Shown here: positions 615 to 27,100 of the stretch, one piece after another | Layout: each line of letters starts with the position of its first letter | Position numbering within the stretch: position 1 is the first letter of the stretch | Source: Spinacia oleracea | Taxonomy: Eukaryota > Streptophyta > Magnoliopsida > Caryophyllales > Amaranthaceae | Direction of reading: 5' to 3' | Length of the DNA: 64,000 bases | Assembly: GCF_020520425.1 (NCBI RefSeq) | Contig: NC_079491.1 | Location: 6,869,143 to 6,933,142, forward strand | Made by a program: the position numbers and the translations under genes | The notes under the pieces: model-generated | The model's input: only the letters and a program-made list of their open reading frames with translations | What the model was told of the DNA's origin: nothing | The model's database searches: none

Positions 615-1137
615 TCTATACTAATATATTAAAAGGCGTTGCGAAAAATGTTTATGTGCCACGTAGTACTCTCCTGTTTACGCCACGTCATTCACGCACC
701 AAAGGTTATGGGATGTTGTTGACAATTTAAAATCAATACAATAAGGTTCGAACACAGGACCTCAAGTTTGGAGAATAACTCTGATTACCATCTTAACCAA
801 CCTCTAATTGTTGTTTATCAATGCACGTTAATTTATAAATACATGTTAACATGAAGTCTAAAACAACTAAATTTCTATGTTACCTCTTATTTCTTATGGA
901 CTATATTGGAATAAAAATAATAATTAAAATATTAGAAAAACCATGAATTAAACAATTAAAACATTAAGAAAATTACTTGGCATTATAAAGGTAATGTACA
1001 TGTGTAATTGATGAACTTAATGAATCTTTTCACTTTTATGGTCTACATGTATTTTAGTCAAATATTGAGTTGAAAAAGAATTTCGAATTTTAATTATTCA
1101 AAGTAGCAACCGGGACATCGCCCGAGCTGCACACTAG
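615..1137 (+). mobile_element. Non-autonomous Helitron (copy 1)
   Basis: The 5' end is TCTATACTAATATATTAAAA and the 3' end is a GC-rich hairpin (CGGG..CCCG) followed by ACACACTAG-like sequence ending in CTAG. It is inserted between A (614) and T (1138), as Helitrons do, with no target duplication. It has no coding capacity. It shares termini and internal sequence with the copies at 1.4, 18.4, 19.6 and 24.5 kb, and carries a tRNA-like segment on its minus strand. Confidence 0.75.
745..799 (-). other. tRNA-like box A/box B segment in Helitron copy 1
   Basis: Read on the minus strand, TGGTTAAGATGG matches the pol III box A consensus TRGYNNARNNGG and GTTCGAACC matches box B GWTCRANNC. The span from box A start to box B end is 55 nt, as in a real tRNA (positions 8 to 62). 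No complete cloverleaf was found, so this is a tRNA-derived piece, not a tRNA gene. Confidence 0.55.
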
Positions 1138-1389
1138 TTATTATTTAAAGGTGGTGTACAATAAATATTGTGCTTCCTCCGTATATTTTATAATGTTACT
1201 CATGTTTTCTATTCATATGGTCAGAGTGTTGGATTATGTAATTAATCTAGATATTTTGTGAATATTCTTGGATATTCTTGGATATGATGCGCATAAATAG
1301 AAAGTATTTAAGATGGGATGAGAAAGTTTGTGATGTTTATCAGCGACAACACAATGAGAAGATATATTGAGCACTGATTAATAATTTAA

Positions 1390-1952
1390 CTAGTTTGTGG
1401 CCCGGGCGTTGCTCCGGGTTTTACTTTTAGTGGGATTTACTTATTTTAAATATGTGCGTATGTGGTGCTATTATCTGATTTCCATGCAAGATCAGTGGCC
1501 GATCAACAAACTTCCTTCCCATATCCGAAAATCAAAACAAAGTCGAGTTCTCTTTTTCATGATTAGTTGATTATTATACTCTTGTTAATGTTTCCCTCTT
1601 CTGCACTCATAATTACACTCCATTACCATAAGTTTTTTATTTTTTAAGCTTAAGTTGATAAGAGAAGAATTGTACATTTATAAGTTAAGTAAATAATTCC
1701 CTTTTGTTTTTTTTTCCCTTTAATTCATTATTATTCATTTTAAAAAGAAAAAGATATAACATCATTGTGGCTAGCTAAGATGGTAAGAATTGTAACTTTT
1801 AATTCAAGAGGTCTAGTGTTCAATCCTTGCTATATGCTTTTTTGGTTGTCAACTACATGACATAGTATTTAGTAGGGGTGATGTGGCGTAATAAGGAGGG
1901 ATCTACGTGACACATATACGTTCTTATAAACGCCTTTTAATATATTAAATAG
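1390..1952 (-). mobile_element. Non-autonomous Helitron (copy 2)
   Basis: Reverse orientation. CTAG at 1390-1393 adjoins the hairpin GGCCCGGGCG..CCGGG, which is the 3' end. The 5' end near 1952 reads ATTTAATATATTAAAAGGCG on the minus strand, a diverged form of the copy-1 start. It carries the same internal tRNA-like segment (1772-1826). The 5' terminus is slightly decayed, so its exact base is uncertain. Confidence 0.65.
1772..1826 (+). other. tRNA-like box A/box B segment in Helitron copy 2
   Basis: TAGCTAAGATGG (box A consensus) and GTTCAATCC (box B consensus) span 55 nt. Confidence 0.5.
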
Positions 1953-2230
1953 TCTTATATGCACGCGATGCGTGCAGGAGTATATATAAATCTTAAACTT
2001 GTGATTATTACATTTAATCACCACAAATAATAAGCAAGCTTCAAGTTCAACTGGTATTTTGTTAATCTCTCATTCGCAACAAAAGTGCATACGCTAGAAA
2101 ACCTTCTTAAGTGTCTGAACTTAAGCATGCCTTGCAACTACATTCGCAGTTAAATAGATCAACCAAGTATATACAACACACAATCACATAAGCGTTGTTT
2201 CAGCTAAAGTTGTGTATGTGTTTTTTTTTA

Positions 2231-3732
2231 CGGATATTTCATGAAATGCCCTCGAGTTTTTCCATAATTCACCAAACGCCCATCAAGTTTCAATAATTCA
2301 TAAAATACCCCTCACAATTCGTACAAATACCCAACATACCCTTACTAATAACGGACCGTTAGTCTGCCGTTAGCCAAGTTTTCAATTCACCCAAATGCCC
2401 CTATTCTGAAACTTATTTCACCAAATGCCCCTATTGTGAAACTTTTTTCACCAAATGCCCCAAACTTAAATATAGCTATTTTGATGTTTCAGCGACTAGT
2501 TTTTGTGTTTGAAAGGTAGTTGTTGGTCACGGTCGACTATAAAAGCCCCTTTGCTGAATGGTTCTTGTAAGTTAGATGTTATTTTGATTTGCTTTGCTAA
2601 TTTCATAAGATTTTTGTCATGAGTTTTCTTTCAAAATCATCATCCACACCCAATGAGTCCACATATATATTAGAGTACCTACCAAATTTTGTTATTGTGG
2701 TAGGAAATTTGTTATTCGAAGCTCTAATACAACACTCAATCCACAAAGGTTGTACTACAAGTGTGATCCTTGAAACAATCTGAGATGGTGAAAGGGAGTA
2801 GCTGAGCAAAAAAACAAGGGGCAACAACACGAAGGAAAATGCGGGGGAAGCTTAGACGAATGAGAAAGTATTGAAAACAGGCGAAACAGTAAGATGCAAG
2901 AAGAATTGAAGCAAATGAAGAAGAAGCTAAAACAACAACAAAAAGTAGTCAAAGTTGTAATACAAATGGGGATATTAATGTTTGTAGTTTTACTGTTTGT
3001 AATCATGAAGTAAACACAAGTAATGAGAAAAAAAATTCACATTTCATAAATAATTGATGTTGCATAATCTGCACAAAATACCAAAGTGGGAAGCATTTCT
3101 GTTTTTAGCTTCACTTACAAAACATCTTTGCACCAACTACATTTAATGTTATTTTCTACTCAACGAATATGTGCAAGATCAAAACAGATGTGCAAAAAAC
3201 TACCCCAAAAAGCATTAGCAGCTATCCAGAAGAGCTTGTGGAACACCACTTCAACCTCCATTCCTACCACAATAACAAAATTTGTTAGGTACCCTAATAT
3301 ATGTGGAATGATTGGGTGTGGAAGATGATTTTGAAAGAAAACTCATGACACAAATCTTATGAAATTAGCAAAGTAAAGTAAAATAACATCTAAAATACAA
3401 GAACCATTCAGCAAAGGGGTTTTTATAGCCAACCATGACCAAGAACCACTTTTGAAACACAAAAACTAGCCGTCTGAACATCAGAATAGCTATATTTAAA
3501 TTTGGAATTTGGTGAAATAAGTTTCCTAATAGGGGCATTTGGTGAAATAAGTTTCAGAATAGGGGCATTTGGGTGAATTGGAAACTTGGCTAACGGCGGA
3601 CTAACGGCCCGTTATTAGTAAGGGTATGTTGGGTATTTGTACGAATTGTGAGGGGTATTTTATGAATTATTGAAACTTGATGGGCGTTTGGTGAATTATG
3701 GCAAAATTCGAGGGCATTTCATGAAATTTCCG
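2231..3732 (+). mobile_element. Mutator-like element with long TIRs and a GRF-type cargo gene
   Basis: Terminal inverted repeats of about 475 bp (2231-2707 and 3258-3732) begin CGGAWATTTCATGAAATGCC. A 9-bp target duplication, TTTTTTTTA, flanks it at 2222-2230 and 3733-3741, which is diagnostic of Mutator-like elements. There is no transposase. The interior holds a degraded GRF zinc-finger gene, and the right arm contains an inverted copy of the front of the same gene. Pieces of the same TIR family recur at 35.1 kb. Confidence 0.85.
2619..3013 (+). pseudogene. GRF zinc-finger protein remnant inside the MULE
   Basis: A frame over about 2657-2770 encodes VPTKFCYCGRK, then NPQRLYYKC. This fits the plant GRF zinc finger (CxCG..NPxRxFxxC). 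It is followed by a stop in frame. An ATG at 2619 opens a serine-rich start in a neighbouring frame, consistent with a one-base indel before the finger. A clean 39-codon tail (2894-3013) has a Lys/Gln coiled coil, then a hydrophobic membrane segment, the usual C-terminal layout of plant GRF proteins. The order finger, coil, membrane anchor supports the call. It is broken and unlikely to make a full protein. Confidence 0.6.
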
Positions 3733-3836
3733 TTTTTTTTAAATTAAAATAGTACAGCAGCAAATCAAGGTTCATGTTCATGAAAATTAGATAAATTGAC
3801 ATCTAAAACAGATGTAGCTCTGATAAGTACAAATCC

Positions 3837-4148
3837 TTATGAGACTCCTCTGGCTGGTACATCATATTGATACCACTGTGAGCCTTGCTTCCTCCCTAGC
3901 TTCATGGCCATGCGGTCAGCAAGTGGCTGGTGTGTGTGTTTTTTTTAATAACAGAATGGTCTGCATTATATGAAACCGGATTCTTGTATCTCACTTTTCC
4001 AACAATGGAGATTATTTTTTTTCCTTTTTTACATGATTGACTGCAAAAGAAACTTATTATTGGAAGCTCTAAACCTCATGAATGATCTTTTCATGGTTGT
4101 CATCATCTCCATCGCAATCAGGATCTTCAGCTGACATTCCGGAAGAAT
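3837..4148 (-). pseudogene. Two-exon C-terminal gene fragment, family not recognised
   Basis: Two minus-strand pieces splice in phase. Exon 4075-4148 encodes an acidic stretch (SAEDPDCDGDDDNHEKIIHE) and has an AG acceptor and a GT donor. Exon 3837-3926 follows and encodes PLADRMAMKLGRKQG then SQWYQYDVPARGVS and a TAA stop. The phases agree (74 nt = 2 + 24 codons, then 30 codons including the stop). I could not name the family. With no upstream gene body and other fragments nearby in the opposite direction, this is most likely a captured C-terminus. Confidence 0.4.
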
Positions 4149-4654
4149 CTGTTCAAAGGGGGGCATAATATATGAGATATAAACTGATGCCTCTAGTCAA
4201 CTCCAAACCTCAGGTAAATGGGCACATAATTGAGTCATATGCCTTCACTATCGGCTAAGAAATTAAAAACATAAGTAGCATTTACACTTTAAAAATAATG
4301 TAAGGAGTAGCAGATTTCCTTCTTAATGGAAGTTATTTAAGCACTTATTCAATTTTACAGGTATGTAACACCATTCAAGAGACGGCAAATAAGGCCGATG
4401 CTCCAAAAAGCATCAGCTATATTCTGAAAGATTAAAACCCGAGAAATAGTTCAAAAATGATCAAAGAATCCGATCCTCATGCCCTATTTCACAGAGTCCA
4501 GATCAACAACTTTACAATAAACCATCGTAAGACACACAACAACATCCAGAAGCTAGTCCCAAGACTGAACCCGAGAATTTAAAAACCCATAAATATTAAT
4601 TTATTAATTCCATTTTTAAAAAATCAATTATTTCTCTTTTGTTTCTCTCTACAG

Positions 4655-4746
4655 GAGATGCTACTTCGAAGCGCATCAACGCCTCTGCTAAACTCATGGG
4701 CAATGAACCACTCTCCTTCCGTACCATCCACCCCAACTTCTCCTGA
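4655..4746 (+). pseudogene. Exon-like fragment, plus strand
   Basis: After a polypyrimidine-CAG acceptor the frame reads DATSKRINASAKLMGN, then EPLSFRTIHPNFS and a TGA at 4744-4746. The sequence is well behaved and coding-like but unassigned. Its strand is opposite to the neighbouring fragments at 3.8-4.1 and 4.9 kb, which suggests capture of unrelated gene pieces. Confidence 0.35.
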
Positions 4747-4895
4747 ACCTAAATCTCAGCATAGACCTAAGACTGGACCCGAGAATTTAAAAACCCTAAA
4801 ATTTCCTTACTTTCCCCCCCAAAAGCTAATATTTGAAAACATAAGAATTTTATTTTTAATTTTAGGGGAAATTGAATAATGAATCGAAAATTACC

Positions 4896-4955
4896 TCAAG
4901 TCCAACACCTTCTCCGTGAAGAGCTTTGATGTTGTCGATGTTGCCATAAGCGACC
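4896..4955 (-). pseudogene. Twenty-codon exon-like fragment, minus strand
   Basis: A clean 60-nt exon lies between CAG and GTAATT and encodes VAYGNIDNIKALHGEGVGLE. Both splice signals are good. The family is not identified. It may belong with the C-terminal piece at 3.8-4.1 kb as an earlier exon, or be an independent capture. Confidence 0.35.
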
Positions 4956-6974
4956 TGCTGGTACAACACTTAAGCCTTTGATTGTTGTTACACCTTCAGC
5001 CTTTGCGTGCATATAAGACTACACTTCAGCCTACATAAAAGAGTACATGTTACATCTAAGATCAGATATAATAATGAGGATTTAACCCAAATCAAAAACA
5101 GCAACCAACTTGGCAACAATTTGATTAAATATGTAATATGAACCCATTTTGTCAACTTACCTTTCAGCAATTACCACCAACCAGCAAATAACTCATCAGA
5201 CATAAAATGTTCAGCTACTAATCTCACTCCTACAGCCAAATTCAATCAAATAATAACAAAGTCAGAGGTACCCAAAAACTAAAAGCTAGCTATAAATCAA
5301 ATTGATGAAAATATTGAGAACCAACTTAAAAATTGAATTGAAAATGTTCAAGAGAGAGCAAGAGAGCTACCAGCCATTGGTATTTGGTAGTGTTGAAGAA
5401 AATGTAAAAGAATGAACAAAGATACGTGTGTATCATAGTTCGAGAATCGACTCATCTAACGGCTGAAAAAGGTATACTGCCGTCTTACACGACAGCCGGA
5501 AGAACTACATGCCGGAAAATAATAAAAAACAAAATTAAATGATCAACACCAATTAAAAATCCTAATAATTATCAAAACAGAAAAAACATCCCCAAATATT
5601 TTATTATTCAAATTCAAAATCCATACCTGTAATCGCATTGAAACATGACATAATTACAGTCAACCCTAAATATCTCAGGTCATATCACTCTTCTAATTCT
5701 TTATTTTTACAGAATCGATCAAACTTTCTTCTTCTGTCCTTGGCTGCTTCAGTTAGTGGAAGGAATCTCTTGAAACATGTGGTGGCTGCTCATCGACGCA
5801 AAGCAGCAGCTCTTGCACGCACACCCTCTCGAGAAGCAGTCATATTTGATGAAGAAGGACTTCTTAGAGCTGGTGATGCAGGTGTAGCAGGAGCTCTTGC
5901 ACTACATCTGTTTCTTTTTCAGCCTACAATCAAACAAACAAATATTTATCTTTACCATTTTATACTCCAATTAAAATAAATTAAACTAAATTAAATTTCA
6001 AAATTATAAGAATGCCTGGTTACCTTATTTGTCAGCCATCCTGATGTTTATCAGTTCCAAATTTCAACTAGTGTGCAAAGCCCCAAATTTCAACCCTGTC
6101 AAATCCAATCAAAACTGACTTGAAATATAGAAAGAGGGGGAGAGAGACATACAACTTTCTATGAATCGCATTTGATAAATAAAATAAAATAAAATAGGGA
6201 ATTGACGCCAACATAAACAAAAGTTGGTCCGGATCAACCACTATACTACCAGGAAATATAGTTAAGGTTTAGAAATTGAGGGAAATATAACCTGGGTTGT
6301 GTGAGGCGGCGACGCGTAACTCCGGCGGTGGAGGCCAATTGATGTTCCTCTCCTTGACGCCACTGTTGTCGCTTTCTATGGCACCGGATCTAAGGAAGAG
6401 GTATGGTGGTTGTGAATATTATGACGCTCGGTTAAAGATAATTTCAATAACATAACGTAAAATAACAAATTTACCAACAAAAATTGTAAACCTAAAATGA
6501 CGAATTGAAGCCTGACAAATTCTAGTCTGAACTAAGGGGAAAAGAAAACCTTTCAGCGGTGGCAACATTTAGAGAGACGTCATCGGGCAAGCGAACCGGA
6601 GAGCATCCACTGTGACGGATCTTCCTTCCATAGCCGCTGTGGCGGCGGCGCTAGCGACCGGATGAACGGAGGAGTGGTTTATGCAAAACTCGCAGAACTC
6701 ATGAAGGGGATTGAAAGAAGGCATATCGGAGGCCGATCTGAAGAGAAAGTATGAGATTGGGGCTCTCTAACCCTAGAAATGGCTTTGTTGTTTGGTGAGG
6801 GTCTGAGGGAAAAGTGAAGAAAGAGAAAAGTGAGAGGGGAGAGTCTGAGAGGCTCATCAACGTGGACACGGAAATGGGAGGGGGTGAGGGTATTTTCGTA
6901 ATTTACTCAGTGGACACGAAAAGTTATTTTACTGAATTGCCCCTCCCCTCTTGGCTTATATAATAGAGATATAG
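4956..6974. other. Fragment-rich repeat region without a complete gene
   Basis: It holds an open frame at 5638-5979 (+) of unknown nature; its opposite strand also reads Ala/Arg-rich. A GC-rich patch lies at 6300-6670. I see no complete gene. A short direct duplication (AAGACTGRACCCGAGAATTT) lies just outside, at 4561 and 4771. Confidence 0.4.
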
Positions 6975-6975
6975 A
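6069..6975 (-). mobile_element. Putative Helitron with clear 5' end at 6975
   Basis: On the minus strand the sequence after A (6976) is TCTATATCTCTATTATATAA, a classic plant Helitron 5' end. The 3' end is uncertain. The nearest candidate is CTAGTGTGCAAAGCCCC at 6069, without a convincing hairpin. The element could instead extend further left and include the gene fragments at 3.8-5.9 kb. Confidence 0.35.
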
Positions 6976-7215
6976 TACTACGAAGTCATAGTTACTACTT
7001 CATTGAGTATTCAAGTCGAAATTAACTTTGAGGAGCGATAATGTTTGACATAAGAATGCACAACTGTTTACCTTGTGATTAATTGCTTAGACAGAAAATA
7101 AATCGCAAACACTAAGATCAACATTGCCAAACATGTCACAACTCACAAGTAAACTAGAAATATAACTTTTAAAGTAATTCATCTACATATTAAGTCAGAA
7201 AAGCAAGTGTTTGGA

Positions 7216-8303
7216 TCAGTTGTAGAGCATATACTCTGGAGTTGCACTGAACTTGTGGTATCCACTGATGACTTTATGCACTGCATCAAGGAAATCTTTC
7301 TCTGTGACAATTTTCCTTCGAGCACGAATCGCGAACATTCCAGCTTCATTGCACACACTTCTTAAGTCTGCACCTGTTAAAAATTAACCAACACCTTAAT
7401 TAGCTTCTGTTAATAATTAAAGAAAAAGGGGGCTAATTAACTTGATTCGATCACGTACCTGTACAGTTGGGACAAAGGCGAGCAAGTAGTTCAAAACGAA
7501 TGCCCCTTTTAATGCTCATATTCTTGGTATGAATCCTGAATATCTGAGTCCTACCCTCTAAATCTGGAAGCCCAAACTCAACCTTCCTGTCCATTCTTCC
7601 AGGACGCACTAGTGCAGGGTCAAGAGTATCAGGTCTGGATCAAAAACATCATTATAAGACTTTATCATTCAAAATCTATCAACTTTGATTATTAGGAGAA
7701 AATAGCATTATGAGGATGGATATTTAGGAGAAATTTTGGGCTCTGTTTGGTAGGGTCGTCTTTTCCCTTTTCAATCATTTTACGTTGTTTGGTTTGGCAA
7801 GGAATGGAAAACAATTTTCCATAACTCTCTCCAAAGTGGAAAATCCTTTTCCCTTTAAAAAGGAGTGAAATCATTTCTACATTTTCTCCTTACCTCCCCT
7901 CTCCCTTCTTCCCCTAAATCTTCACTATCTCCTCCTATTTTATTTTAAGGAATCAAACAAAGCAAAACTAGTTTGGAATTGTGTTTTTCCTTGAAAAATA
8001 TTTTCCACTGAAAACGTTTTACACCAAACCAAACAGAGCTAGCGCGCCTTGGTGTAGAAATAGCATTATTAGGAGAAAACATATTTAAACCTGTTAGTGG
8101 CCATAAGAACTTTGACGTTTCCACGAGCATCAAATCCATCAAGCTGATTTACGATTTCAAGCATAGTACGTTGTACCTCATAGTCACCACCAGCACCATC
8201 AAAATAACGTGCACCTCCTATCGCATCTACTTCATCAAAGAATATAATGCACCCCTTTTTTGACCTAGCCTCCTGCACCGTACCATACCATACCATACAT
8301 ATA

Positions 8304-8364
<61 letters not shown>

Positions 8365-11122
8365 TTAGCAATTAATTGATGTAACACTCAATTAAGTACT
8401 TAACAGTATTGTATACTATACCTTGAATAGTTGACGAACCATAACAGCACCTTGACCAGGAGACTTACGAACGAGCTCAGTTCCATTGACACGAATAAAA
8501 CAGGCATCAGTTCTGTTAGCCACGGCTTTGGCTACCAGTGTTTTTCCTGTACCGGGTGGACCATACAACAGTACTCCCTTTGGTGGTTCGATACCTAGCC
8601 TTACAAATTTCTCTGGCGCAACCATAGGTAATTCAACAATCTGCAAATTAAGAGAAACATAATATGGTAATGCTGTACAATTACTGAATCAGAAAACTAT
8701 AAATGCTGAAAGTAAAGGAAACTTGAAAGAAATATAGAAAGATGACTAACTTCTCGGATCTGTTGAATCTGTTCTTTGCATCCACCAATATCGTTATACG
8801 TTATATCAGGCTTCTCCTCGATTATACTCTTAGAAGCATCGCGATGATGTCTTGGAGGTAAGGGCATACGTATCTGCCACGTGATCCGATCAACCCTGTT
8901 CAAAATAAAAGTACACCTAATTTACCAGTAGCTACTTTTGTTTCAGAGTTAATTTCTGACACTGAGTGAATTAAGGAGCATTCAAGTAAGGTAGACCTGA
9001 TCAAAAAAAATACATGTCATGCCGGGTTCGGGCCGGGCCAAGGCATAAAAATCAGCTCGTATGTCGGGCCTGGCCAAAATCTGGTTTAGATTTTTGGTGC
9101 CCAAAACCGCTATTTCGGGCCTAAAATGTCGGTCTTTCGGGCCACTTACGGTGCAGGTCAAATATATAACTAAAAGTATAGTTTTACGATGCCCCAAACC
9201 CGATATTTTATAAAAAACGGGCCTAAAAATTCTGCCCAAACCAGCCAAATTTCTGCCGGGGCAAAAAAAATCAGCTCGCGTGTCGAGCCGGGGCAAAATT
9301 CGGACCGGTTTTGTGGTGCCCAAACCCGTTATTTCGGGCCTAAAATGTCAGGTTTTCGGGCCGGGCCTAAAATTGAAACTTTGAGTGTAGTTTTACATTG
9401 TCCAAAACCCGTTAAATTTCTAAAAGTTTCGGGCCAGGCCCGAAAATCGGGCCTAAAAATTCTGCCCAAACCCGCCAAATTTCGGGCCGGGCTCATGTTC
9501 ATCAGGTCTAAAGTAAGGTGACACAATTAGATAATCTAAATAAAAGTTGTTATGGCAAAAGCTAGATCTTTACTGATTATCAGAGACGAGACGGAAACTA
9601 AAAAGAATTTAGGATGATATTCACTTAGTGGTGATTGGTGAAGTTAGGAAATAGATGAATACAATGATTCTGCATGTTAAGATCAGGGAATTGAAGTAAC
9701 AGACAAATAGTATTTTTAATTAGTAATAATCAGTAAAAATATGGATCAATTAATTAAGGAATTAATTAACATACCCAACACGCATGCCTTCTTCTATATC
9801 AGTTGGAGAAACTCTACCATCCAGCTTAACGATCATCTTACGCTGAAACAGTAATAGATCGATTAAGTTTATTGAATGAAAATACTGATAGATCGAAAAA
9901 ACTGTATGTTTAATTACATTTTCTACACATTTAATGATGCAAAAAATCAAAGAGGAACACCAGATACTATACCAATCTCCCCACAAAATTAACTGCATAT
10001 TTAGCTTCTGGAGTGTTAGGGTTGATTATGCTGGTGCATCTCGCAACCTGTACATCAGTATCAGTATCAGTATCAGTATCAGTATCAGTATCAGTATCAG
10101 TCCCAACACTCATTGTCATTACCCCATTGCCTCAAAGAAGCTCCCGCAAGAAGCGGGGTAAGGGGGTCGGACGTACGCAACCTTACCCCTGCAATTGCAG
10201 AGAGGTTGTTTCCAATTGACCCAAAAGCGATAACGGGACGACAACCGAACAACCATCTTCTACTTCATGGAAAGGAAGCGAAGAGGTTATAAGAGCCATT
10301 TTGATTTAATCCATTACATCCCATGGCCAAAAGAACAAATGAATCTTTGACTCCATTGGAAATGGACATTATCAGTCCCAACACTATTAACAAATTTTGA
10401 GACTAATATGTAAATTAATGTAATGAAACAGAGATTAGTAATAAAAACAGTTATTATTATTATTACCATAAGAGATCTTTCCCACATTTGCCTATCAGAT
10501 TTGAGATCCCATTTGTCAGGAGTTGCCAATCCTGTATCAGATTCCTCGATTCCTGTCATACAATTAACAAGATGATTAATTAATTAGTTCAACCCAGAAA
10601 TTTAAAACAAGAAGAAGAAAAATCCAGACTTTTTTCCATAAAATACCTTGAAAAATGTGATAACAACTTCGATAATACTACAACATAACTAGAATTAACT
10701 ACTAACTGACAAAATTCATACAGTTGTTTCATAAAATCTTTGGAGATGATACAATGCAATTACAGACTATAATAACAACTTACTGACTTGATAATTAATT
10801 AACATTACAATTGAATTATTATGTACCGCGTAAATCGGCAACTCTCTGAACAATTTCCCTTATTTCCTTTTCCAAATTATCAATGCTGGTTGAGTAAGCA
10901 GAACTGTTCTGCATATATCATCAAACTCAAGTCTCAGAAAAAATTATCATCAAAATTAAATTAACATAACTTTTTCCCCTCTTAATCTTTACTTAATTAA
11001 AACCTACTTAATTGAAATGAGGAAGGAGATGTTTATCTCACATAGGTTTTCAAAAATTCAATGTCGAACTCGTCCAGTGGTGTCACTTTCTTGTCCTCGT
11101 CATCTTCATGTTCTGTTCCCAT
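7216..11122 (-). CDS. RPT1: 26S proteasome regulatory ATPase, RPT1-like, divergent pore loop
   Basis: AAA-ATPase of the 19S base, which unfolds ubiquitinated substrates and feeds them into the 20S core. Exons (minus, in coding order): 11042-11122, 10827-10908, 10467-10552, 9985-10047, 9775-9842, 8751-8895, 8422-8640, 8091-8272, 7459-7634, 7216-7373. They total 1260 nt, 419 aa, close to plant RPT1 (about 426). Seen: acidic start [10 protein letters not shown], coiled coil, [25 protein letters not shown], Walker A GPPGTGKT (202-209), Walker B IIFFDE (to 262), RPGRMDR arginine fingers, C-terminus ATPEYMLYN. Odd: pore loop 1, normally KYVGEG, reads KSPGQG (Ser235), and the following Arg is Val. 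No frameshift is seen. It is probably a diverged second copy; whether it works as an unfoldase subunit is uncertain. Confidence 0.9.
7740..8039. mobile_element. MITE in RPT1 intron, GCTCTGTTTGG ends
   Basis: It has terminal inverted repeats GCTCTGTTTGG / CCAAACAGAGC and the same body as the Tourist-like MITE at 48982-49322 (AAAACGTTTT and TTTTCC-rich halves). The target duplication is not clear here. It lies in the intron between exons 8 and 9. Confidence 0.65.
8309..8361. repeat. (TA)n microsatellite
   Basis: About 26 TA units in the RPT1 intron; length is likely to be variable. Confidence 0.9.
8993..9510. mobile_element. GGGCC-rich element with 9-bp duplication in RPT1 intron
   Basis: Inverted ends AGACCTGAT / ATCAGGTCT are flanked by the 9-bp direct repeat AAGTAAGGT (8984-8992 and 9511-9519), indicating a Mutator-type insertion. 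The interior is made of repeated CGGGCCGGGCC / CCCAAACCCG phrases and is far more GC-rich than its surroundings. It has no coding potential of its own. Confidence 0.65.
10050..10100. repeat. (TATCAG)n hexamer microsatellite
   Basis: Eight units of the hexamer TATCAG sit directly next to RPT1 exon 4 (9985-10047), within the intron's acceptor end on the minus strand. Length change here could affect splicing. Confidence 0.85.
10103..10226. mobile_element. SINE fragment (Au-like)
   Basis: It contains GCTCCCGCAAGAAGCGGGGT, a GGTCGGACGTACGCAACCTT stretch, then ACCCCTGCAATTGCAGAGAG and TTGTTTCC. This series is characteristic of the Au-type SINE family common in dicots. It is partial and I see no tail. 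It lies in an RPT1 intron. Confidence 0.5.
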
Positions 11123-12100
11123 TTTTGTATCTGGGTTGTTTTCTTCAGAAACAAGTAATTTGACTCATTAATCTCTGATCAAAACAGATTAGGTGGAAAT
11201 TTGATCGTTTTAATACGTGATTATACCCTTTTTGGAGTACAATTTTACATGATAATAACTTAGAATTAACAGAAAGTTCAACAGAAATGTAAGTTTTTCT
11301 CCAAAAAAATCACAATTAAAACCAAGTTAACACCCAAGAATCCAAGATTACGTGCCCAAATGATTGAGAAATCATAGATTAATTAATTTTTCTTAAAATC
11401 ATTAATATTAACCTAGAAGTATAACAGTAATTAGTAATTACAACTCAAACACGGAATTCAATAACCAAGAACTATGAATTAATCTTGCATGCAAATTAAA
11501 TAAATTAAATAATTCATGGGTTTAAACTTTATGGAATTGTATGATTGAATTTGAAGCAAGAAATCGAAAAACTAACCGATGAATGCAAAAAAGAATGAGC
11601 TGAAACTCTGAAGTTTGATCAAAGTCTGTTTGGGTTTCTTGAAAATGAAGTATTTAACAGAATTACAACGTACTGAACTGAAATGGGTGACGATGTTAAG
11701 TTGACTCAATTAGGAAATGGTAGGTTTTAAACAGGGGGTAAAGATTTCAATCTTAACTAACTTTTTCTATGGGTTTTCTTGATTGTTTTCACGATATAGA
11801 ATAAGTTTTTATTCCCGGGGTAAGAATTAAGAAGAGAGGCTTAAAAGGCAAATGATTTAAACGGAATAAATCTAAGACCTCAAGTCTTCAATGTCACCTT
11901 ATAAACTTCCTTAATACGGAGTAGTTCCTTAACTAAACGAGTTAAACTAAATATAGTACTATCAATATATCCGGGTTGGAATCCCGTACGGGTACCATAA
12001 ATATAAAGGATTGTAGGTATGTTGTAAGGAGTAATTCCTAACTTATGTGACAATTTACTATTGGGCTGGGCGATACTATAAATGACGTGGTGATTCCAGT
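11123..12100 (-). other. RPT1 upstream region
   Basis: Upstream of the RPT1 ATG. AT-rich, probably containing a 5' UTR (perhaps with an intron) and the promoter up to about 11.7 kb. No clear TATA box could be assigned. Confidence 0.4.
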
Positions 12101-12480
12101 GGATTAATTAAGCAGGGTGTCAATTCGGACTATCAGGTCCGGGTTGAAACGAGTTTATTTGGCTATCAGGTCGGGTTGAAAAATTAACGAAATGATTCCG
12201 GATAGTGGACACGTGTTCATATCGGACCTGGTTAATATCCGGTCGGGTTCATTCGGGTCAGGGAACAATCGTGTCAGGTCAGGTTGGGTTGTAAACAAGT
12301 TTAGTCGGGTTGTAATAGGTTCGAGTCATATCGGATCGGATTCATATTTGGTCAGGTCAAGTCGGTTCGGGTTGGAACACGACATGTTGTAAACAGTTTT
12401 AGCGAGTTATAACAAGTACATATCATATCGGGTCGGGTTCATATTGAGTAAGGTCAATTCAGATCCAAATTAGAAACATT
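12101..12480. repeat. GGGTC/CGGGTTG-rich degenerate repeat
   Basis: Short phrases such as GGTCGGGTTCAT, CAGGTCGGGTTG and GTCAGGTCAGG recur many times. This resembles the GC-rich bodies of small transposons elsewhere in the window, but no ends or target duplication could be fixed. Confidence 0.4.
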
Positions 12481-12580
12481 ATCGGGTTGTTACTAAAATC
12501 ATAATTTCTTCTCTTGGCACATTTGACGACTCTAGGTTAGCCTTGAAGTCTAAACAAATGTGCTCGTCAAGAGAGGGGAA

Positions 12581-12688
12581 ATAAATCAAATAATTAGATA
12601 AAACAAAGGTCAATTAATTAAGGTAAAATAAGTTATAAATCAAATAATTAGATAAAACAAAGGTCAATTAATTAAGGTAAAATAAGTT
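12581..12688. repeat. Perfect 54-bp tandem duplication
   Basis: Two identical adjacent 54-bp units starting ATAAATCAAATAATTAG. They are identical, so either young or an assembly artefact. Confidence 0.9.
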
Positions 12689-18094: not shown

Positions 18095-18813
18095 CTTGAG
18101 CCACTGTGATTCAGAGATATGGGCAAAGAAGTGAAGAACCAGTGAAAGTTTGTTGGAACTGTGTCGATAAAATTGAGGAACAAATTGGGATGTGATCGAA
18201 CCCGAATTTTATTTTATTTTTTGACCTATTTCTATTAGCCCCTTTTAAAAATCCAATCTTAAGTCGTTTTGAATTAGCTTAGCTTCCGATAATAGTCAAA
18301 AAGTTAAATATTGAGTAAGTTTTATTATCAAACACGGGTTCATTCGGGAAATAAGTACAAAATTAGTGTGTAGCTCGGGCGATGCCCCGAATGTTAAATT
18401 GAACACTTGAATTTTTAGATTTATTTTTGAGCTCAATATTTGATAAAATACATGTACACTATAAAATGGAAAACATCCATCATTTTTGTCTACTACACAC
18501 ACTATGTCGTTTATCGTGGGAAATATATTTTCAATTACGTACACCATCTTACAATTTGTATAATTTCTTTTTCTAGTGGAACTAAGTGATTCTAATTAAT
18601 AAAAATCAAATTAGATATATGCAGCTATGCAAGGCATTTCTGTAGTTGATGTTGATGACAATTATGATATCATGTTTATTCATGGTTGTCCTAATTTTTT
18701 TTTTTCCAAATAGTCAATAGAAAATTAAAAGTCACATAAAAATTTATTATTTTAGACTTCATGTTAACATTTATTTATAAATTAATGTGAAGATATATAC
18801 CACAATTGGTGGT

Positions 18814-18868
18814 TGGTTAAGATGGTAATGAGAGTTATCATCCACACTTGAGGTCCGAAATTCGAACC
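18814..18868 (+). other. tRNA-like box A/box B segment in Helitron copy 3
   Basis: TGGTTAAGATGG and ATTCGAACC span 55 nt. Box B has one mismatch at its first base. Confidence 0.5.
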
Positions 18869-18953
18869 TCATTGTATGTATTGATTTTTGGTTGTCCATG
18901 ATATGACATATCATTTTGTGAGTGAATGATGTGGCGCAAAGAGAAGAGTAATA

Positions 18954-19281
18954 CTCCCTCCGTCCCGGAATACTTGACCTGTTTTCCTTATCGGGCCGTC
19001 CCTTAATACTTGATCTGTTTCTAAAAATGGAAATATTCTAACAAATATTATATTATTTCTCACTCCACCCCTATTAACCCACCTACCCCCTACTCCATAC
19101 AAAAAATAATTAAAAATTCAACCCCTACTCTCCCCCACCCCACCCATTTACACATTTCCCACTAACTACATTAAAATAATACCCCACTATCAACTACTAC
19201 TTATTAAATTAAATAAGTCAATTCAAGACCCTTAAACTCTGTGCCGGTCAAACCGGGTCGAGTATTCCGGGACGGAGGGAG
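18954..19281. mobile_element. Stowaway MITE
   Basis: Inverted ends CTCCCTCCGTCCCGGAATAC / GTATTCCGGGACGGAGGGAG with a TA duplication (18952-18953, 19282-19283). The family is Tc1/mariner-related. It is nested in Helitron copy 3 and therefore younger. Confidence 0.9.
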
Positions 19282-19627
19282 TACGTGGCAAATAGACGTT
19301 TTCCAACGTCTTTTAATATATTAGTATAGATATAAACTTTTGGTGGGTTTTCATTCTAAAATTGATGGAATGATAATAAAATGAGTAGTCGAAGTATTAG
19401 TTGGTAATATTTTCTCTATTTTTTCAACGAGGATTGTCCACACAAACAAACAAGTTGATTAAATAAGTAAATATCATATTTTGAAGGCAAGATAAACACG
19501 AAAAAGGTTAGGATATTATAGATAAACCGAAGAAAAAAAAAATTAGAGCAACATCAAGGGGTCTTATCTTAAGACTTTTCTCATATGTCATGTCAGATTT
19601 CCACTAATATTTAATTAATTAAACTTT

Positions 19628-20092
19628 TGTAACAAGGATCGAACACCAGACCTCTTTGTTGAAAGTTACACTTCCTACCATCTTAGCCAACCACAACTTA
19701 TGTTATATCTTTCTATATTAACATATATATTCTTTTGACGTTAAATAATACATTAAATAAAAGTGAATGCAAAGAAAAAAGGAAAAAAGAAAATGATTAC
19801 TTAATTTATAAATGTAGAGTTATTATTTTTCTAGCTTAAGGCTCAAAAAAAAAAATGGTGCAATAAATCAACTAATTATGAAGAAAAGTATCTAACTTTG
19901 TTTTGATTTCCGAATGTGGGATTTCATAGTTGGGAAGTTTGTTGATCGGCCACTGCACTAATCTTGTGTCACCACCGTAATTTGATGTCATTTGATGTCG
20001 ACGACGACTCCATCTATATGTGCACATATTTACAAAATAAATAAACTCAAATAAAAGTAATAAACCGGGGCAACGCCCGGGCTACACACTAG
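19628..20092 (+). mobile_element. Helitron (copy 5), 5' end missing
   Basis: The 3' end is intact: GGGGCAACGCCCGGGC hairpin, then ACACACTAG ending at 20092. The expected TCTATACT start is absent. The internal tRNA-like segment (19636-19689, minus) is almost at the left edge. The insertion is bracketed by an imperfect direct repeat TTTAATTAATTAAACTTT (about 19610 and 20093), unusual for Helitrons. Confidence 0.6.
19636..19689 (-). other. tRNA-like box A/box B segment in Helitron copy 5
   Basis: Minus-strand TGGCTAAGATGG and GTTCGATCC both match consensus and span 54 nt. Confidence 0.55.
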
Positions 20093-20373
20093 TTTAATTA
20101 ATTAAACTTTGTTAAGACTTCTTCAGACTCAATCAAATTCAGTTCTTCACCCCTCAACTCATTTAAAACATCTCAAATAATATAACATTTTAATTTATTT
20201 TTTTAATTTAACTCACATATTGAGTCTTAGTTTTACAAGATTCGATTTAAGACTTTGTTAAGACGAACCCACTTCAATGCTACAAATTGAAATGTTTGAT
20301 CTTAAAACTAGGTGAATCATATGCCATGTCAGCAAAATTCAAGTCTTAAGACTTGGCGCTGATGTTGCTCTTA

Positions 20374-23300
20374 GTACTAAGTATTGGTTGTTTTGGGTCT
20401 ACCTTGACCAGAAATTTGGGAATAATTGATTATATTCCAGGCATTGGGCATCATTTGAAGATCCAATTCTTTTTCTTTTTTTATTTTTTTTATTTTAGGA
20501 TTATACCCGAATCGACCCAGAACCCGCACCAACTATATCCACTTTTAGCAGATTTGGAGATAAAACTTATTTGGCCAAAGGTCAAACTCCACCCGGCCCA
20601 TGATCACCTCCAGATGGACCTAGATCATTCAAGAGAGTTATAGTTTCTTTTGCTATTGAACCCATATTTTTAGTTGGCGGCCCATCAAACTTCAAGTTTA
20701 TGATTCATGGATGAGGTTTCCAAGAAATGGGACTTGGCTTATCTAATCAAGTCGGCGCAGTCCTACACGAAAAAAGCATAACACGACACGGACACAGAAA
20801 AAGTACATCCCGGCACGGCAATAAGTCGTGGACTATGGGCTCGGTTCAGACAACACTTTTTGGGAAAAGTATGATTGGGCATGGTGCTATTGTACTACAC
20901 AACAAAGCACGTTAATTGTAGTGAAATAAAGATTAGGCATGAGGCTCATTACAGCTCGACACGTGGGCTTGGGTCATGAATTCATGCATAAGCCACCCTT
21001 TTAAAATTTGCGACCAACACTAAACAAATGAGTTTGACATGGACAACACCCATTTAGGCCCATAGCACTAGGAAAGAACGACCCAACACGGTACATGGTC
21101 ATCTTTTGGCTTATCTTCAAACGGAGTAAGTATGATTATAATCTTTCTCAGTAAGAGTAATATTTTACATAATCTAATGTAACTCAATAGTACTATGTCG
21201 GTAGCTAAACTTCATAGTGTCTCAACAATGTCATGAGGTGACTTCTTTCGAACTAATTTCACAATTGTCTTTCGATAGGTCTTGTATACAACAAGTATAA
21301 TTTCATACAATAAGTTTGACTTTACAAATTTATACAGAGTAGTACGCTTGCTTATTTAACCTTTTTAAATCTGATTGGAACTTACTACACTTAAAAATTA
21401 TGCTTTTCAGGTGAAATGAACGCACCTTGTGTATGTAATTATGTCTTGTCCCACTTTCATGTTAGCTTTCTCTATTTTGCAAGTTGATTGTGAATAGAAG
21501 AGTAGAGTTGGTCTGATTAATCTGATGGAGTACCAGAGTTGGTTGCCAACATGAACATCCACACAGTACGTCATCAACGATAGTAATCCAATTTAAGTAA
21601 TCTTATTCTTATCTAGACTAGTCCCAATGTCCCATACTCCCATACCGAACTACTTTGTACGTAACAACTAACAAGTGAAAAATGCCTTGAATGTTTCATC
21701 ACTGAAAAAAAAAGGCAATTTGGATAATAAATTATCCGGCAACTAGTGCACTAAATTTATAAACTTTCTATCCTTAGAAATGTATTTTAAACTCTTAGAT
21801 AGACCATCACACGTCTTTTGATTCCTTTTACATTCCGCATAAAATAAGTGTAATAAGTATCACAAGGATATGATAATTGACAAAAACCTCACGAAATACG
21901 TCTCCTTGTAATATAAACAGACAAATAACCCGTATAATTTTAGATTCAAGCTAGTAAATTAGAGGAAAACACCGTATTTCTCAAAGCCACACGGCTTTCA
22001 CCTTTCATGAGAAAAAGTAAAACTTATAAAATGCATCTGGGAACACCATACACCAAGCATGTGTTACATGTGATGCCAAAACTCGACTCTTCACATGCCA
22101 ACAGCCAACAGCCAACACGGGAGTACGATTCTCGTTGCTCTCGGGTGCACGTTATACATACATGTTACATTGAAGAGAAGCATACATATGTACGGCCGAG
22201 GAACTCGATCTTGTAAGATGAGAAGTTGTTTAATCCAACCAAGGAATGGAAATCCAGTGAGATGAACTTTTTTTATACAAGTGCAAGGACCTATAATGGG
22301 CTCCCATAGTGGTTAACAATCTTTATCTAAACCAAAACAATAAAAGCAAAGTGATAGAATGACATAACATAATGTTACAATCATATTCCACTAATATGTG
22401 TTTCTATAGTACGATGACCCCCTCTTTTTTCCTTTGATAATGCCATCATCTTTAAGATTAATGTGACCCCTCATTATGTGAATATGTGACCCCTTGTGTT
22501 CTAGCTTCCACATGCACGAAAATCGTACGAATCGAATCAATGCTTTGTTCTTTTCACGTTATTCTTATTGCATATTGCTTATTTTTCTAAAAATCATATC
22601 AGATAAGAAAAATTAGATCAAACTAACCAGACTAGAAAAATAAAGATAAACACTCACAGAAAACATTCAGACCCACATCAGGAAAAATCAGACCAGATAA
22701 AACCAAACCAAACCAGTGACTAGAAAAATCAGACATGGTAAAGAGCACAGAGCCCAAGTCATAATCTTGGGGCGTAATAACAACCATGCTTACCTTTCAA
22801 CCCCGAGATCAGAACTACCCTTTATCCGGGAGGGAGGGTTTAGGTTGTACTTAGGTTAGGTACCTTTTATGGTTGTAAGAGGACCATGTTGACATGTTGT
22901 ACTTTACAGTATGGATACATACAATCTAGGGAAAATGCATAAACATCAGGAGCTTTCAGTTTTGAGAAGAAAGTGGTTAACTGGTTACATTACAATATTA
23001 ATGGCATGCCCAAATTACAGATTCATGTATCAGTCGTTCAAGATGATAAGCATTACATCAAATCATGTATCCATCATATAAACAAATTATTGGGATCATT
23101 TCAATTTGAAAATATATCATACACCTACCTAGATCATTTCTTCACTTGTTTTCTTTTTTTAACAAAAATCATTCAAGTTGCTAAATAGTAACAACAAAAT
23201 CAAACAGAACAAAAGTAATTAGGTAAGAAGAAAAAAGAACTCTCAACACATAGATAACAAAGCAAACAGAAGACAGGTGATGGATGCAATGCATGAGTGT

Positions 23301-24162
23301 CATGTTCCTTAACATTTTCCCTTTGCCTGTAATCATAGAAGGCTATGTAGGACAGCTTTTTACTGCCTATTGCCATACCTGGTTGGAAAAGTTACCCATG
23401 GTGCAGCTCATAGCCATTATTGGATGGATAAATCATTCGGCAACTTGAAGACGCCTTTGCCTCCCTCGAGCACTCACTGCAAAAGGGAACACATAGCCTT
23501 TAAGGAAAAAAACAAAGAAGATTGAACAAAGCAGATAAAAGCTGAGTAAAGAGGTCACCTGATAAGACATGAAAAGATTGTATTGGACAATTATTTATCA
23601 GATTCACTGATCAGCAAAGCAACTGTTGAATTCCATGATGTTCGTGGATGTTCTCGTACTTCTAGCACTGAATTACGGAATTCAAGGGACTTCAGATGAT
23701 TTAAGTAACAGCAAACAACTACAGTTTACAGGAAGTCTCAATGATTAATCACCTGAACTGCAAGTTCTGAGCTTGTCAAGGTATCTACCTATAACACAAG
23801 GAGTCTGACCATAGTAGTACACAACCCATTCCATGATCTTATTCCTTTTAGACTGCAGCATTTATTGAATCAAATATGCGGGAGCAACAAATCCAGATAT
23901 CCCATAAATGTTTGAATCGTAGTTAACCAAACAGAGAAACAGTAGGGATTCAGAAGTCTGAGTAGAGATAATTTTAATACTTGCTTCTTCATTATCATAG
24001 TATTAACTATCTATAATCCTTTTGACTGAAAATTACAAACAGATAATCTACACAAATATGATTGGTTAGTATCAGAACCACTAGCACAAAACATAAAAGT
24101 ATATTAATAGGCCTCTCGAGCACTTTTCACTAACAGCTATACTATGAAGGAAAATAGACTTC
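20374..24162. other. Intergenic region and BOR 3' flank
   Basis: No convincing gene. A patch at 20.75-21.1 kb has repeated GCACGACACGG-like phrases, probably an old transposon. Just beyond the BOR stop, at about 23430-23480 (minus), an AG acceptor precedes a short frame SARGRQRRLQVAE with a stop; this may be a 3' UTR or alternative terminal exon of BOR. Confidence 0.35.
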
Positions 24163-27100
24163 TTAGCTCGAAGATGAAGCATGACCATTTCTTCCAAGTA
24201 GAGAATTAGGTCGAGGACTGGGGATTTCAACTATCTCAACCCCTTCTGGACTCATTCCGGGACCTTTCCCCTTCCTCAGTTCAGTAATTCGAGGACTGTA
24301 TACTCTCTGAGACAACCCTGGGCTAGAAGCATGCCTCAAATTCTCAGGGGAAACTGGGGCAGTGCTGGTTACCTTTGGACTTTGAATGTGGCGGATTTCA
24401 CCTCTGCTCCTTGTCATCATACTATCAAGGAACTCTCCATTGTCTATCTTAGTCACAGGAGTTTGCGGATCTTGAACCTGTACAGGTAGTAGTTACCAAG
24501 CAGACCATAAGACATTGTTCAACAAGTCTTAAGAGAAAACTAGTGTGTGGCCCAGGCGTTGCTCCGGGTTTTACTTTTAGTAGGGTAATTTTTTGTAAAC
24601 ATGAACCCATTTTTAAAAAGAACGTATTTTATATTTATATGAAAAAATATAACATGCGGAGTACGTTGTAGCTAGTTAAGATGGTAGAAAGTGTAACTTT
24701 TAATTCAGGAGGTTCGGTGTTCGATCCTTGTTACATGTTTTTTGGTTGTCAATAACATGTCACGATGCTTATTAGTGGTAACGTGGCGTATGGTTGTCAA
24801 TAACATGTCATGATACTTATTAGTGGTGACGTGGTGTATGGTTGTCAATAATATGTCATGATGCTTATTAGTGGTGACGTGGCGTAATAAGGAGGGGTAT
24901 TACGTGACACATATACGTTCTAATAAACGCCTTTTAATATCTCAGTATAGACTAGGTTGAAGGATTTGGAATGAACTTACTTCATATGACATTTTGTAGG
25001 TAATGGCAGGTGCCTCCTCGTATTCAGCTGCATCTAAATCCTGAAGATGGGCTCCCTTGAAAAATCTTGGCAGAACATACTGTCTAACTGGGACAAGAAG
25101 CATAATGAACAAGGGGAAAAGAACTCCTGCTATTGGGATCCATGTTATGCCAAAACACAGCAGCAAGTATACAGTCTGGAAAATTGTGAACAGTGCAATC
25201 GTTTTGAAGGGAACTGTCTCAATGAAGGTTGCATGCTGCTCATCGAGCACCCTGAAAAATGTCATCATAAACCACATGTAAGATAGTAAGGCTTATAAAC
25301 CACTCTACAAGAAAGCTTAAAATTAGAAGTGGGGCATACTTATATCGTCGACCAGGAGCTGTAAAAAGTAACAAAATTCTATCCCAACACTGATTTCCTG
25401 GTAAGCTTTCAATGGCCATGAAAGCAAAGTACCCCCAAAGAACTGCTGTAGGGATTTTCTTTAAGACAGGCATAGCTGCAACACAGCCACCAACCATTAT
25501 TGCCTGAAGCAAATTGCTGAGACGTTGTTCTTTTACTTCAATGGGCAGAAGATCGTCTATGTCCTTATCAACATCAAAAACAGTTTCATCAACCGGTGTG
25601 TCAATGTCACCACCATCTGAGAATTTCTGAATTGTTGATTCTTTCAACTCCTTCAGTCCCTGTTAGAAGATCTGAGTTAATATAAAGGAGGCGAGAATGC
25701 GAGATAATAATCCTCACTAATGCTGGAAAACAGTTTGAGATCAACTACTTTACCAGAGAAGATGGTATCTGATAGACAAGAGGTGTCTGCATTTCTTGGT
25801 AAGCATCTTGCATGTTTCTGTATAACTGACCCAAGTTTGAATTATTTTGTATGCTATCTTTTGCTGCTGCTACAAGTTTATTTCTCAGAATCTGTTACAA
25901 AAGCCAGTGAATCATTTTAGAACCTCATCTCATAGATTTGTACAAATATTAGCCAGATTTTGAGTGAATGATACCCGGTGTTTGAGAGTAGCCAAGCTTC
26001 TTGTATGCATAGGAGATTGAGGAATGACTCCATTTGAGGGGGGAATACCAATAAGACCGCAGAATATGACCTGGATAACCAAAGTCACAAATGATATCAA
26101 GCTTTATACATTTTTAAGCCTAATTAAGTAATCAAATTTAACTCCAAATATCATGAAGAAATTAGTTCAATCCTGGAATTAATTGCTTACCAGAAAACCA
26201 AGGAGAAGGAGATCATAATGGTACGCGGAAGGTTTCTTCAAATTAAACTCCTTTTGTTGAGCCAACTGAGAAGCAACACTATGATCAAAATAGTAGAGGA
26301 CAGCAATCATGGTGGCTGGGATAAAAGCTCCAACAATATATAATGCAGGCACATCCATCATATCCTGAAAAACAACAAAGCTGCACTTCTTACAAGGTTC
26401 TGAAGCAAAGAAACACACAATTTAGTTCTGTTTTAGGAAATTTAACATGCAACACAATATAAGCACCTTGATGACAGTCCAGTTTGAATAAGCGCCAGGA
26501 GACCAAGGATTTGGACTGAAAAGACGCCTAGGAATGCCGTTTGGAACATTATGAGCTGGTGCATAAGATATAGCAGTCCATGCAAGCACCAAAATTGGGA
26601 CACCGTAATCTGCAATCAATCCCCGTAACCAACCTGTTCATTTTAAATCAAGCAAAGATGTAAATGACCAGATAAAAGACCAAGCAGCATCAAACACTAG
26701 TGAGGTTGGACATCGAAGAGCTTACCATTACCTTAAAAGTCAAATTACATTAAAGAAACCTAAAACACACTTTTCTATCCATGAGATCAAGAATAAAGAT
26801 CCAAAGAGAATGTATACCTGCACCATAGCGCCATGATCTAGCTTTGCGACTTTTTAATGCAGTTAAAAGAAGGCCAAATGACATAACAAGTGCAAACATT
26901 CCATTGCCAAAACGCCAAGAGGGATGAAATGCAGTCTGATTTGGATTTTCCCTCTGAGGTACACGAAATTCCTCCACCGCTCCCTGCAAAGTAACATTTA
27001 GGTAGAATCAAATAAAAGTGCTAGTAAAGCCAAACAAAAGGGTCAGAACAGCATCAAATAAGTGGTTTTTGTTTTCTTTTACACACTCAGAACTTGGCAT

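What the first reader, a model, noticed from the sequence alone, without database searches (positions are those of the whole stretch)
615..24951. A Helitron family that carries a tRNA-like pol III promoter segment
Five Helitron copies (615, 1390, 18363, 19628, 24540) each hold a segment with box A TRGYNNARNNGG and box B GWTCRANNC (one copy with a single box B mismatch). The distance from box A start to box B end is 55, 55, 55, 54 and 55 nt, the tRNA spacing. Conservation of both boxes and the spacing while flanks differ suggests a captured tRNA or SINE head, possibly kept because it is transcribed.
Basis: partly seen in the sequence, partly recalled or inferred. Interest (0 to 1): 0.72.

Follow-up and report, generated by a model that had tools for sequence, protein, structure and literature searches.

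The report
Helitrons carrying a tRNA-derived promoter segment
A large family of plant "rolling-circle" jumping DNA carries, at a fixed place and reversed, a degraded piece of a transfer-RNA gene whose promoter signals appear to have been kept as the family diverged, so these elements may be transcribed by the machinery that makes transfer RNAs.

Summary
In detail: four strict box A + box B pairs in the window, all in Helitrons, plus a fifth with one box B mismatch; spacings 55, 55, 55, 54, 55. The genome (894 Mb; plant, probably spinach, inferred) could be searched. The five copies represent five abundant subfamilies, all with the segment antisense to the Helitron, box B about 130 nt inside the 5' end, followed by a T-run. 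It is tRNA-derived: one consensus matches the genome's own tRNA-Lys(UUU) over 55 columns, anticodon loop in register, far above shuffles. It is no longer a tRNA: no ARAGORN, Rfam or cloverleaf support. Single-copy variants are as frequent in the boxes as between them. Yet all four box differences between subfamily consensuses respect the pol III motif, true at 1 of 110 mask positions, suggesting the motif was kept in source elements. In the one sample chosen by a query lacking the boxes, boxes are no more conserved than flanks. Best reading: an old tRNA or SINE-head capture, now fixed in the Helitron, plausibly still a pol III/TFIIIC site. Transcription is untested. A DNA-transposon parallel to TRIMp3 elements (Cassandra, Helenus).

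The parts
615..1137 (+). E1, non-autonomous Helitron, subfamily IIa: TCTATACTAATATATTAAAAGGCG ... hairpin ... CTAG
745..799 (-). E1 box A to box B, 55 nt, antisense to the Helitron
1390..1954 (-). E2, non-autonomous Helitron, subfamily I13; terminal TCTATACT degenerate
1772..1826 (+). E2 box A to box B, 55 nt, T-run downstream
18363..19330 (-). E3, Helitron, subfamily IIb, split by a short inverted-repeat element at about 18953-19281
18814..18868 (+). E3 box A to box B, 55 nt, one box B mismatch
19626..20092 (+). E4, Helitron, subfamily I19; 5' end and T-run missing (sequence differs just beyond the cassette)
19636..19689 (-). E4 box A to box B, 54 nt; member of the subfamily closest to tRNA-Lys
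24540..24951 (-). E5, non-autonomous Helitron, close to the 300-nt subfamily Ish, with a 48-bp unit repeated between cassette and 5' end
24673..24727 (+). E5 box A to box B, 55 nt, T-run downstream

Best explanation
These are non-autonomous Helitrons whose common ancestor acquired a tRNA gene remnant (best candidate tRNA-Lys(UUU), directly or through a SINE head) near its 5' end, in antisense. The remnant became a fixed part of the element and was inherited by at least five subfamilies. It lost the tRNA fold but kept the A box, the B box, the 54-55 nt spacing and a T-run 3' of box B. Shown: the anatomy, its constancy in the copies sampled, and the tRNA ancestry. Suggested by the data: the pol III motif was preserved in source elements as subfamilies diverged. 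Inferred, not shown: TFIIIC binds the boxes and pol III makes a short RNA (about 75-85 nt) running towards the Helitron 5' end and stopping at the T-run some 110 nt short of it; this would help the element by keeping that end open or unsilenced.
For: Five subfamily consensuses share box A, box B, spacing and T-run. Strict pair in 88 of 105 aligned copies; 85 of those 88 have TTTT within 30 nt 3' of box B. All 30 loci fetched with a 5'-end query that lacks the cassette gave a cassette hit: 27 at the usual place, one being E5 itself with its place shifted by repeats, one partial (L089), and one whose best hit lies in a neighbouring second copy (L075). tRNA match: I19 scores 132 against tRNA-Lys(UUU), shuffle mean 57.6, maximum 87 of 300; Lys still ranks first for I19 among 35 tRNA sequences. 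The part between the boxes alone is tRNA-like. Between groups the boxes are 19/21 identical against 87/136 for the rest (p 0.011, IIa-Ish) and 19/21 against 65/99 (p 0.018, IIa-I19); the rest here is box A through the T-run to the terminal 26 nt, which are left out, as is the sequence upstream of box A (14/32 in IIa-Ish). All four fixed consensus differences in the boxes fall on degenerate motif positions; sliding the same mask finds this at 1 of 110 offsets, mean 6.1 breaking differences.
Against: No tRNA fold: folding z-scores from -1.66 to +1.45; no Rfam tRNA match; ARAGORN 0. IIa-I13 is not significant (17/21 against 71/110, p 0.11). Other windows of the region are as conserved as box A (9 of 139 12-nt windows) or box B (25 of 134 9-nt windows). 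In the sample chosen without the boxes, shared variants are as frequent in boxes as in flanks (8 in 21 sites, 61 in 152, p 1.0), and the deficit against the stretch between the boxes is not significant (25 in 33, p 0.11). Counting all shared variants, motif-keeping is not significantly commoner than among single-copy ones (6 of 10 against 7 of 24, p 0.13); 4 of 6 two-copy variants break the motif. The nearest tRNA isotype differs between groups I and II. E4 has lost its T-run. No transcript data.
Confidence: 0.5

Rival explanations
1. Passive passenger: the same tRNA-derived capture, but the boxes have no function; they look conserved because the subfamilies are not very old and the 5' part of the Helitron as a whole evolves slowly.
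For: Single-copy variants are as frequent in boxes as between them; in the sample chosen without the boxes, box and flank shared variants are equal; the 5'-terminal 26 nt are 26/26 and the T-run-to-terminus stretch 59/85 identical between IIa and Ish.
Against: The stretch between the boxes diverged to 18/34 between IIa and Ish while the boxes stayed at 19/21 (p 0.004); the motif mask is free of breaking differences at 1 of 110 offsets.
Confidence: 0.38
2. On origin (compatible with either functional reading): the segment is the head of a SINE that inserted into the ancestral Helitron, not a tRNA gene taken up by the Helitron itself.
For: Degenerate tRNA similarity without a cloverleaf and with ambiguous isotype resembles a SINE head; SINE insertion is the proposed origin of the pol III segments of TRIMp3 elements (PMC10886601, discussion read).
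Against: The tRNA-like part is followed 10-16 nt after box B by a T-run, and I saw by eye no SINE body, A-rich tail or target duplication in the consensuses. No free SINE with this head was found, but no search able to find one beside the dominant Helitron copies was run.
Confidence: 0.4
3. The conserved blocks serve Helitron transposition as DNA (for example protein binding near the 5' end) and the likeness to pol III boxes is a relic.
For: The blocks lie in the conserved 5' part and occur in the copies sampled by a 5'-end query.
Against: What is preserved fits the degenerate A/B motif with tRNA spacing; Helitrons without such boxes exist (recalled from general knowledge).
Confidence: 0.12
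4. Chance resemblance to a pol III promoter.
For: The motifs are degenerate.
Against: 0 pairs in 60 simulated windows; tRNA similarity also outside the boxes; anticodon loop in register.
Confidence: 0.02

Closest known systems
Non-autonomous plant Helitrons
   Same: 5' TC, 3' hairpin plus CTAG, insertion between A and T, many copies, variable interior.
   Different: A fixed, antisense tRNA-derived segment with both pol III boxes and a T-run near the 5' end.
TRIMp3 elements (Cassandra, Helenus, Ajax)
   Same: A non-autonomous mobile element that carries a small-RNA-gene-derived pol III promoter but probably makes no functional small RNA (PMC10886601: abstract, section 3.4 and discussion read).
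   Different: Those are LTR retrotransposons that move through RNA; a Helitron moves as DNA, so any benefit of pol III must be different.
tRNA-derived SINEs
   Same: Degraded tRNA head with A and B boxes.
   Different: No SINE body, tail or target duplication seen by eye; the mobile unit is the Helitron.
Arabidopsis tRNA-Cys cluster overlapping annotated Helitrons
   Same: tRNA sequence associated with Helitrons (PMC10701932, passages read).
   Different: There annotated tRNA-Cys genes (11 of 13 unique transcripts with RNA-seq signal, per the abstract passage) sit in local clusters, and three Helitron finders gave no reliable prediction over them; [quoted passage not shown] Here a remnant sits in a dispersed, many-copy Helitron family with defined ends.

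Membership tests
Helitron (non-autonomous) | 5' TC and 3' CTRR | tested here: met
   24 of 28 rows with both ends recognised start TC, 26 of 28 end CTRR (E5 is in twice, and L008/L009 and L019/L020 are near-identical pairs; the other 7 of 35 rows lacked a recognised end)
Helitron (non-autonomous) | Short hairpin just upstream of the 3' end | tested here: met
   by eye: CCCGGAGCAACGCCCGGG or close variants before CACACACTAG in the elements listed
Helitron (non-autonomous) | Insertion between A and T without target duplication | tested here: met
   23 of the same 28 rows have A before and T after; empty sites not examined
Helitron (non-autonomous) | RepHel source in the genome | tested here: inconclusive
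   154 matches to PF14214 (150 of 353 candidates scored, list cut), many in long open frames, none of those listed inside the window; which one mobilises this family was not determined
tRNA gene | Cloverleaf recognised by tRNA models | tested here: not met
   ARAGORN 0 (bacterial setting), Rfam 0 at gathering score in the window, no tRNA among 3 matches up to E 10 in 16 copies, no cloverleaf in folding of five consensuses
tRNA gene | Sequence homology to tRNA | tested here: met
pol III type 2 promoter | A box, B box, tRNA spacing, T-run terminator | tested here: met
   by sequence only; B box GWTCRANNC is a published tRNA promoter consensus (PMC9073682 citing Paolella 1983, passages read); the A box consensus is recalled, one search found it in no held paper
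pol III type 2 promoter | TFIIIC binding and transcription | not testable with these tools
   no transcript or occupancy data
tRNA-derived SINE | Own body, 3' tail and target duplications | tested here: not met
   none seen by eye in the subfamily consensuses; the segment sits at a fixed place inside the Helitron; no dedicated computation

The most novel reading that the evidence does not exclude
A rolling-circle DNA transposon family has domesticated a tRNA-derived pol III promoter as a functional module: source elements with intact A and B boxes out-multiply others because pol III/TFIIIC activity next to the 5' end promotes strand opening or protects from silencing, making these Helitrons the DNA-transposon counterpart of TRIMp3 elements.
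Probability: 0.3. Interest if true: 0.8.

Novelty: new variant of a known kind. Interest (0 to 1): 0.5.

Why it matters
Small-RNA-derived pol III promoters are known in SINEs and in a few LTR elements. A many-copy Helitron family with one fixed in place would extend the pattern to DNA transposons, where an RNA template cannot be the reason for keeping it. It would make testable whether pol III or TFIIIC helps Helitrons jump or evade silencing, and it would mean that probably hundreds of potential TFIIIC sites (471 to 1,169 uncounted first-look candidates per search) are spread through what looks like a crop genome.

Tried and rejected
Rfam at gathering score on the window and up to E 10 on 16 copies: no tRNA. 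Folding of five consensuses: no cloverleaf. The acceptor-like stem TGTRGY/RYTACA in group I keeps pairing through wobble changes (all six pairs in 8 of 11 I19, 11 of 11 I13 and 24 of the 44 Ish copies that could be parsed of 51), but by eye it is absent from group II and the changes are one-sided, so I gave it no weight. A first count of mismatches per cell favoured the boxes strongly (71 of 2,202 against 244 of 3,532 between them and 420 of 5,654 in flanks, p 9e-10 and 3e-13), but cells share ancestry and most copies were chosen with box-containing queries, so I rest instead. A pattern scan of viral and prokaryotic collections gave 2 and 24 places; a profile found nothing above 6.7 bits in them, so I do not count them as relatives. 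Papers: none of the listings showed me a Helitron with a pol III promoter (titles and abstract beginnings seen, except where stated); others (Amaranthaceae SINEs; tRNA-Lys SINEs) gave nothing relevant. The library lacks most subscription papers, and Repbase could not be searched, so absence from print is not established. A spinach repeat survey (PMC6337768, passages) reports 1,297 Helitrons; the word SINE does not occur in its main text as held. PMC4524691 (passages) and PMC8010984 (passages) did not bear on the question. No cross-species comparison: no other plant genome is held.
Full report
Setting. The window is G000:C5:6869143-6933142 of an assembly of 894,210,420 bases in 242 contigs. The size and the six large contigs fit spinach; this is inference, no name was given.

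Check of the observation. The two motifs, scanned over both strands of 64 kb, occur as a pair four times, all inside Helitrons: 799(-), 1772(+), 19689(-), 24673(+), with 55, 55, 54 and 55 nt. The fifth copy, at 18814(+), has 55 nt and one mismatch in box B. Sixty simulated windows gave no pair at 50-60 nt. A profile of the segment finds these five and nothing else above 4.8 bits in the window. As the copies are homologous they count as one event.

Anatomy. The elements begin TCTATACTAATATATTAAAAGGCG and end CCCGGAGCAACGCCCGGGCCACACACTAG or a related form. Of 28 rows with both ends recognised (of 35; E5 is in twice and two near-identical pairs are included), 24 begin TC, 26 end CTRR and 23 have A before and T after. 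The tRNA-like segment is on the strand opposite to the Helitron in all five window copies and in the subfamily sets; in the Ish consensus box B lies at 129-137 and the T-run at about 113-118 from the 5' end. In E5 it lies farther in, because a 48-bp unit is repeated there. E3 is interrupted by a short element with inverted ends, and E4 lacks its 5' end.

Genome-wide copies. Six searches gave 471 to 1,169 first-look candidates each, of which 40 are scored, so the family is large but uncounted. I obtained 60 loci of 3 kb, 20 of 0.6 kb and 30 short ones. From the 60, two were set aside as the window's own E5 (L001, L061), three for lack of a recognised 5' motif (L004, L005, L006) and four as duplicates, leaving 51 for subfamily Ish. 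With IIa (21), IIb (11), I13 (11) and I19 (11) this makes 105 copies, four of them from the window. In the 30 loci fetched with a 5'-end query that excludes the segment, every locus gave a segment hit: 27 at the usual place, E5 itself shifted, L089 partial, and L075 with its best hit in a second copy nearby. The segment is therefore a constant part of the copies sampled, not an occasional capture; these copies are, however, the best matches to E5's 5' end.

Promoter features. Every subfamily consensus has T[AG]G[CT]TAAGATGG, a B box (GTTCGATCC, GTTCAATCC or GTTCGAACC) at a box A start to box B end distance of 54-55 nt, and a run of at least five T starting 10-16 nt after box B. The strict pair is intact in 88 of 105 copies, and 85 of those have TTTT within 30 nt. 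E4 itself has lost the T-run.

tRNA ancestry. Against tRNA genes of the same genome (22 distinct sequences) the I19 cassette aligns best to tRNA-Lys(UUU), score 132 against a shuffle mean of 57.6 and maximum of 87 in 300; the alignment covers 55 columns with one gap and includes the loop CTTTTAAC in register. I13, Ish and IIa also exceed all 300 shuffles; for IIb 3 of 300 reach the score. With 13 more tRNAs Lys stays first for I19. Using the stretch between the boxes alone, 1, 9, 11, 1 and 42 of 1000 shuffles reach the observed score (I19, I13, Ish, IIa, IIb; 33 of 35 tRNAs could be parsed). Group I is nearest to Lys or Asn-like tRNAs, group II to Arg-like ones (isotype names are my reading of anticodons, and the tRNA set is not complete), so the isotype is not settled.

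Not a tRNA. ARAGORN found nothing (bacterial setting), Rfam no tRNA, and the consensuses do not fold clearly better than shuffles (z from -1.66 to +1.45).

Are the boxes kept? Variants seen in one copy only are as frequent in boxes as between them (24 in 105 sites against 41 in 169, p 0.90), though rarer than in flanks (253 in 593, p 0.002); variants shared by copies are rarer in boxes (10 in 105 sites) than between them (38 in 169, p 0.012) or in flanks (138 in 593, p 0.004). Most of these copies were chosen with a query containing the boxes, which biases this. In the 27 chosen without it, shared variants are 8 in 21 box sites, 25 in 33 between and 61 in 152 flank sites: no difference from flanks (p 1.0) and a non-significant one from the middle (p 0.11); single-copy variants do not differ either (p 0.30 and 0.62). 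Between group I and II consensuses the boxes are 19/21 identical against 87/136 for the rest (IIa-Ish, p 0.011) and 19/21 against 65/99 (IIa-I19, p 0.018), but 17/21 against 71/110 in IIa-I13 (p 0.11); the sequence upstream of box A and the terminal 26 nt are left out of the rest. Sliding windows show other stretches equally conserved: 9 of 139 match box A and 25 of 134 match box B. The four box positions fixed differently between consensuses, and each variant found in three or more copies, obey the degenerate motif; single-copy variants break it in 17 of 24 cases. Taking five such positions by hand gives 5 to 0 against 7 to 17 (p 0.007); taking all shared variants, two-copy ones included, gives 6 to 4 against 7 to 17 (p 0.13). 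Sliding the motif mask along the alignment of consensuses, only the true position of 110 has no breaking difference; the mean is 6.1. I take this as moderate evidence that the pol III motif was maintained in source elements.

Mechanism. Shown: anatomy, constancy in the sample, tRNA ancestry. Suggested: maintenance of the motif. Inferred: TFIIIC recognition and a 75-85 nt pol III transcript towards the Helitron 5' end, stopping about 110 nt short of it. For a DNA transposon the benefit cannot be an RNA template; I favour open chromatin or reduced silencing near the end where the transposase acts. None of this is tested.

Known relatives. Kojima's TRIMp3 elements (PMC10886601; abstract, section 3.4 and discussion read) are LTR elements with small-RNA-derived pol III promoters, thought to arise by SINE insertion. 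[quoted passage not shown] I found no report of this arrangement in the searches named in Tried and rejected; Repbase and most subscription papers could not be checked.

Noticed in passing
window 2230-3733: A long inverted repeat: arms of about 480 nt in three near-contiguous pieces (96%, 89% and 93% complementary) around about 550 nt, perhaps a TIR transposon or MITE.
   Followed up: no
window 18953-19281: A short element with inverted ends (ACTCCCTCCGTCCCGGA ... TCCGGGACGGAGGGAGT) inserted in Helitron copy E3, so it is younger than that Helitron.
   Followed up: partly
window 24730-24886: A 48-bp unit present three times between the cassette and the 5' end of E5, and once in E2: tandem growth inside a Helitron.
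   Followed up: no
window 28686-29025: Direct repeats about 104 nt apart containing AAATTAGCGAAA.
   Followed up: no
window 12581-12688: A perfect 54-bp tandem duplication.
   Followed up: no
G000, whole genome: 154 matches to the Helitron replication-initiator domain PF14214 (150 of 353 candidates scored), many in open frames of over 1,000 aa, so possible autonomous partners exist.
   Followed up: partly
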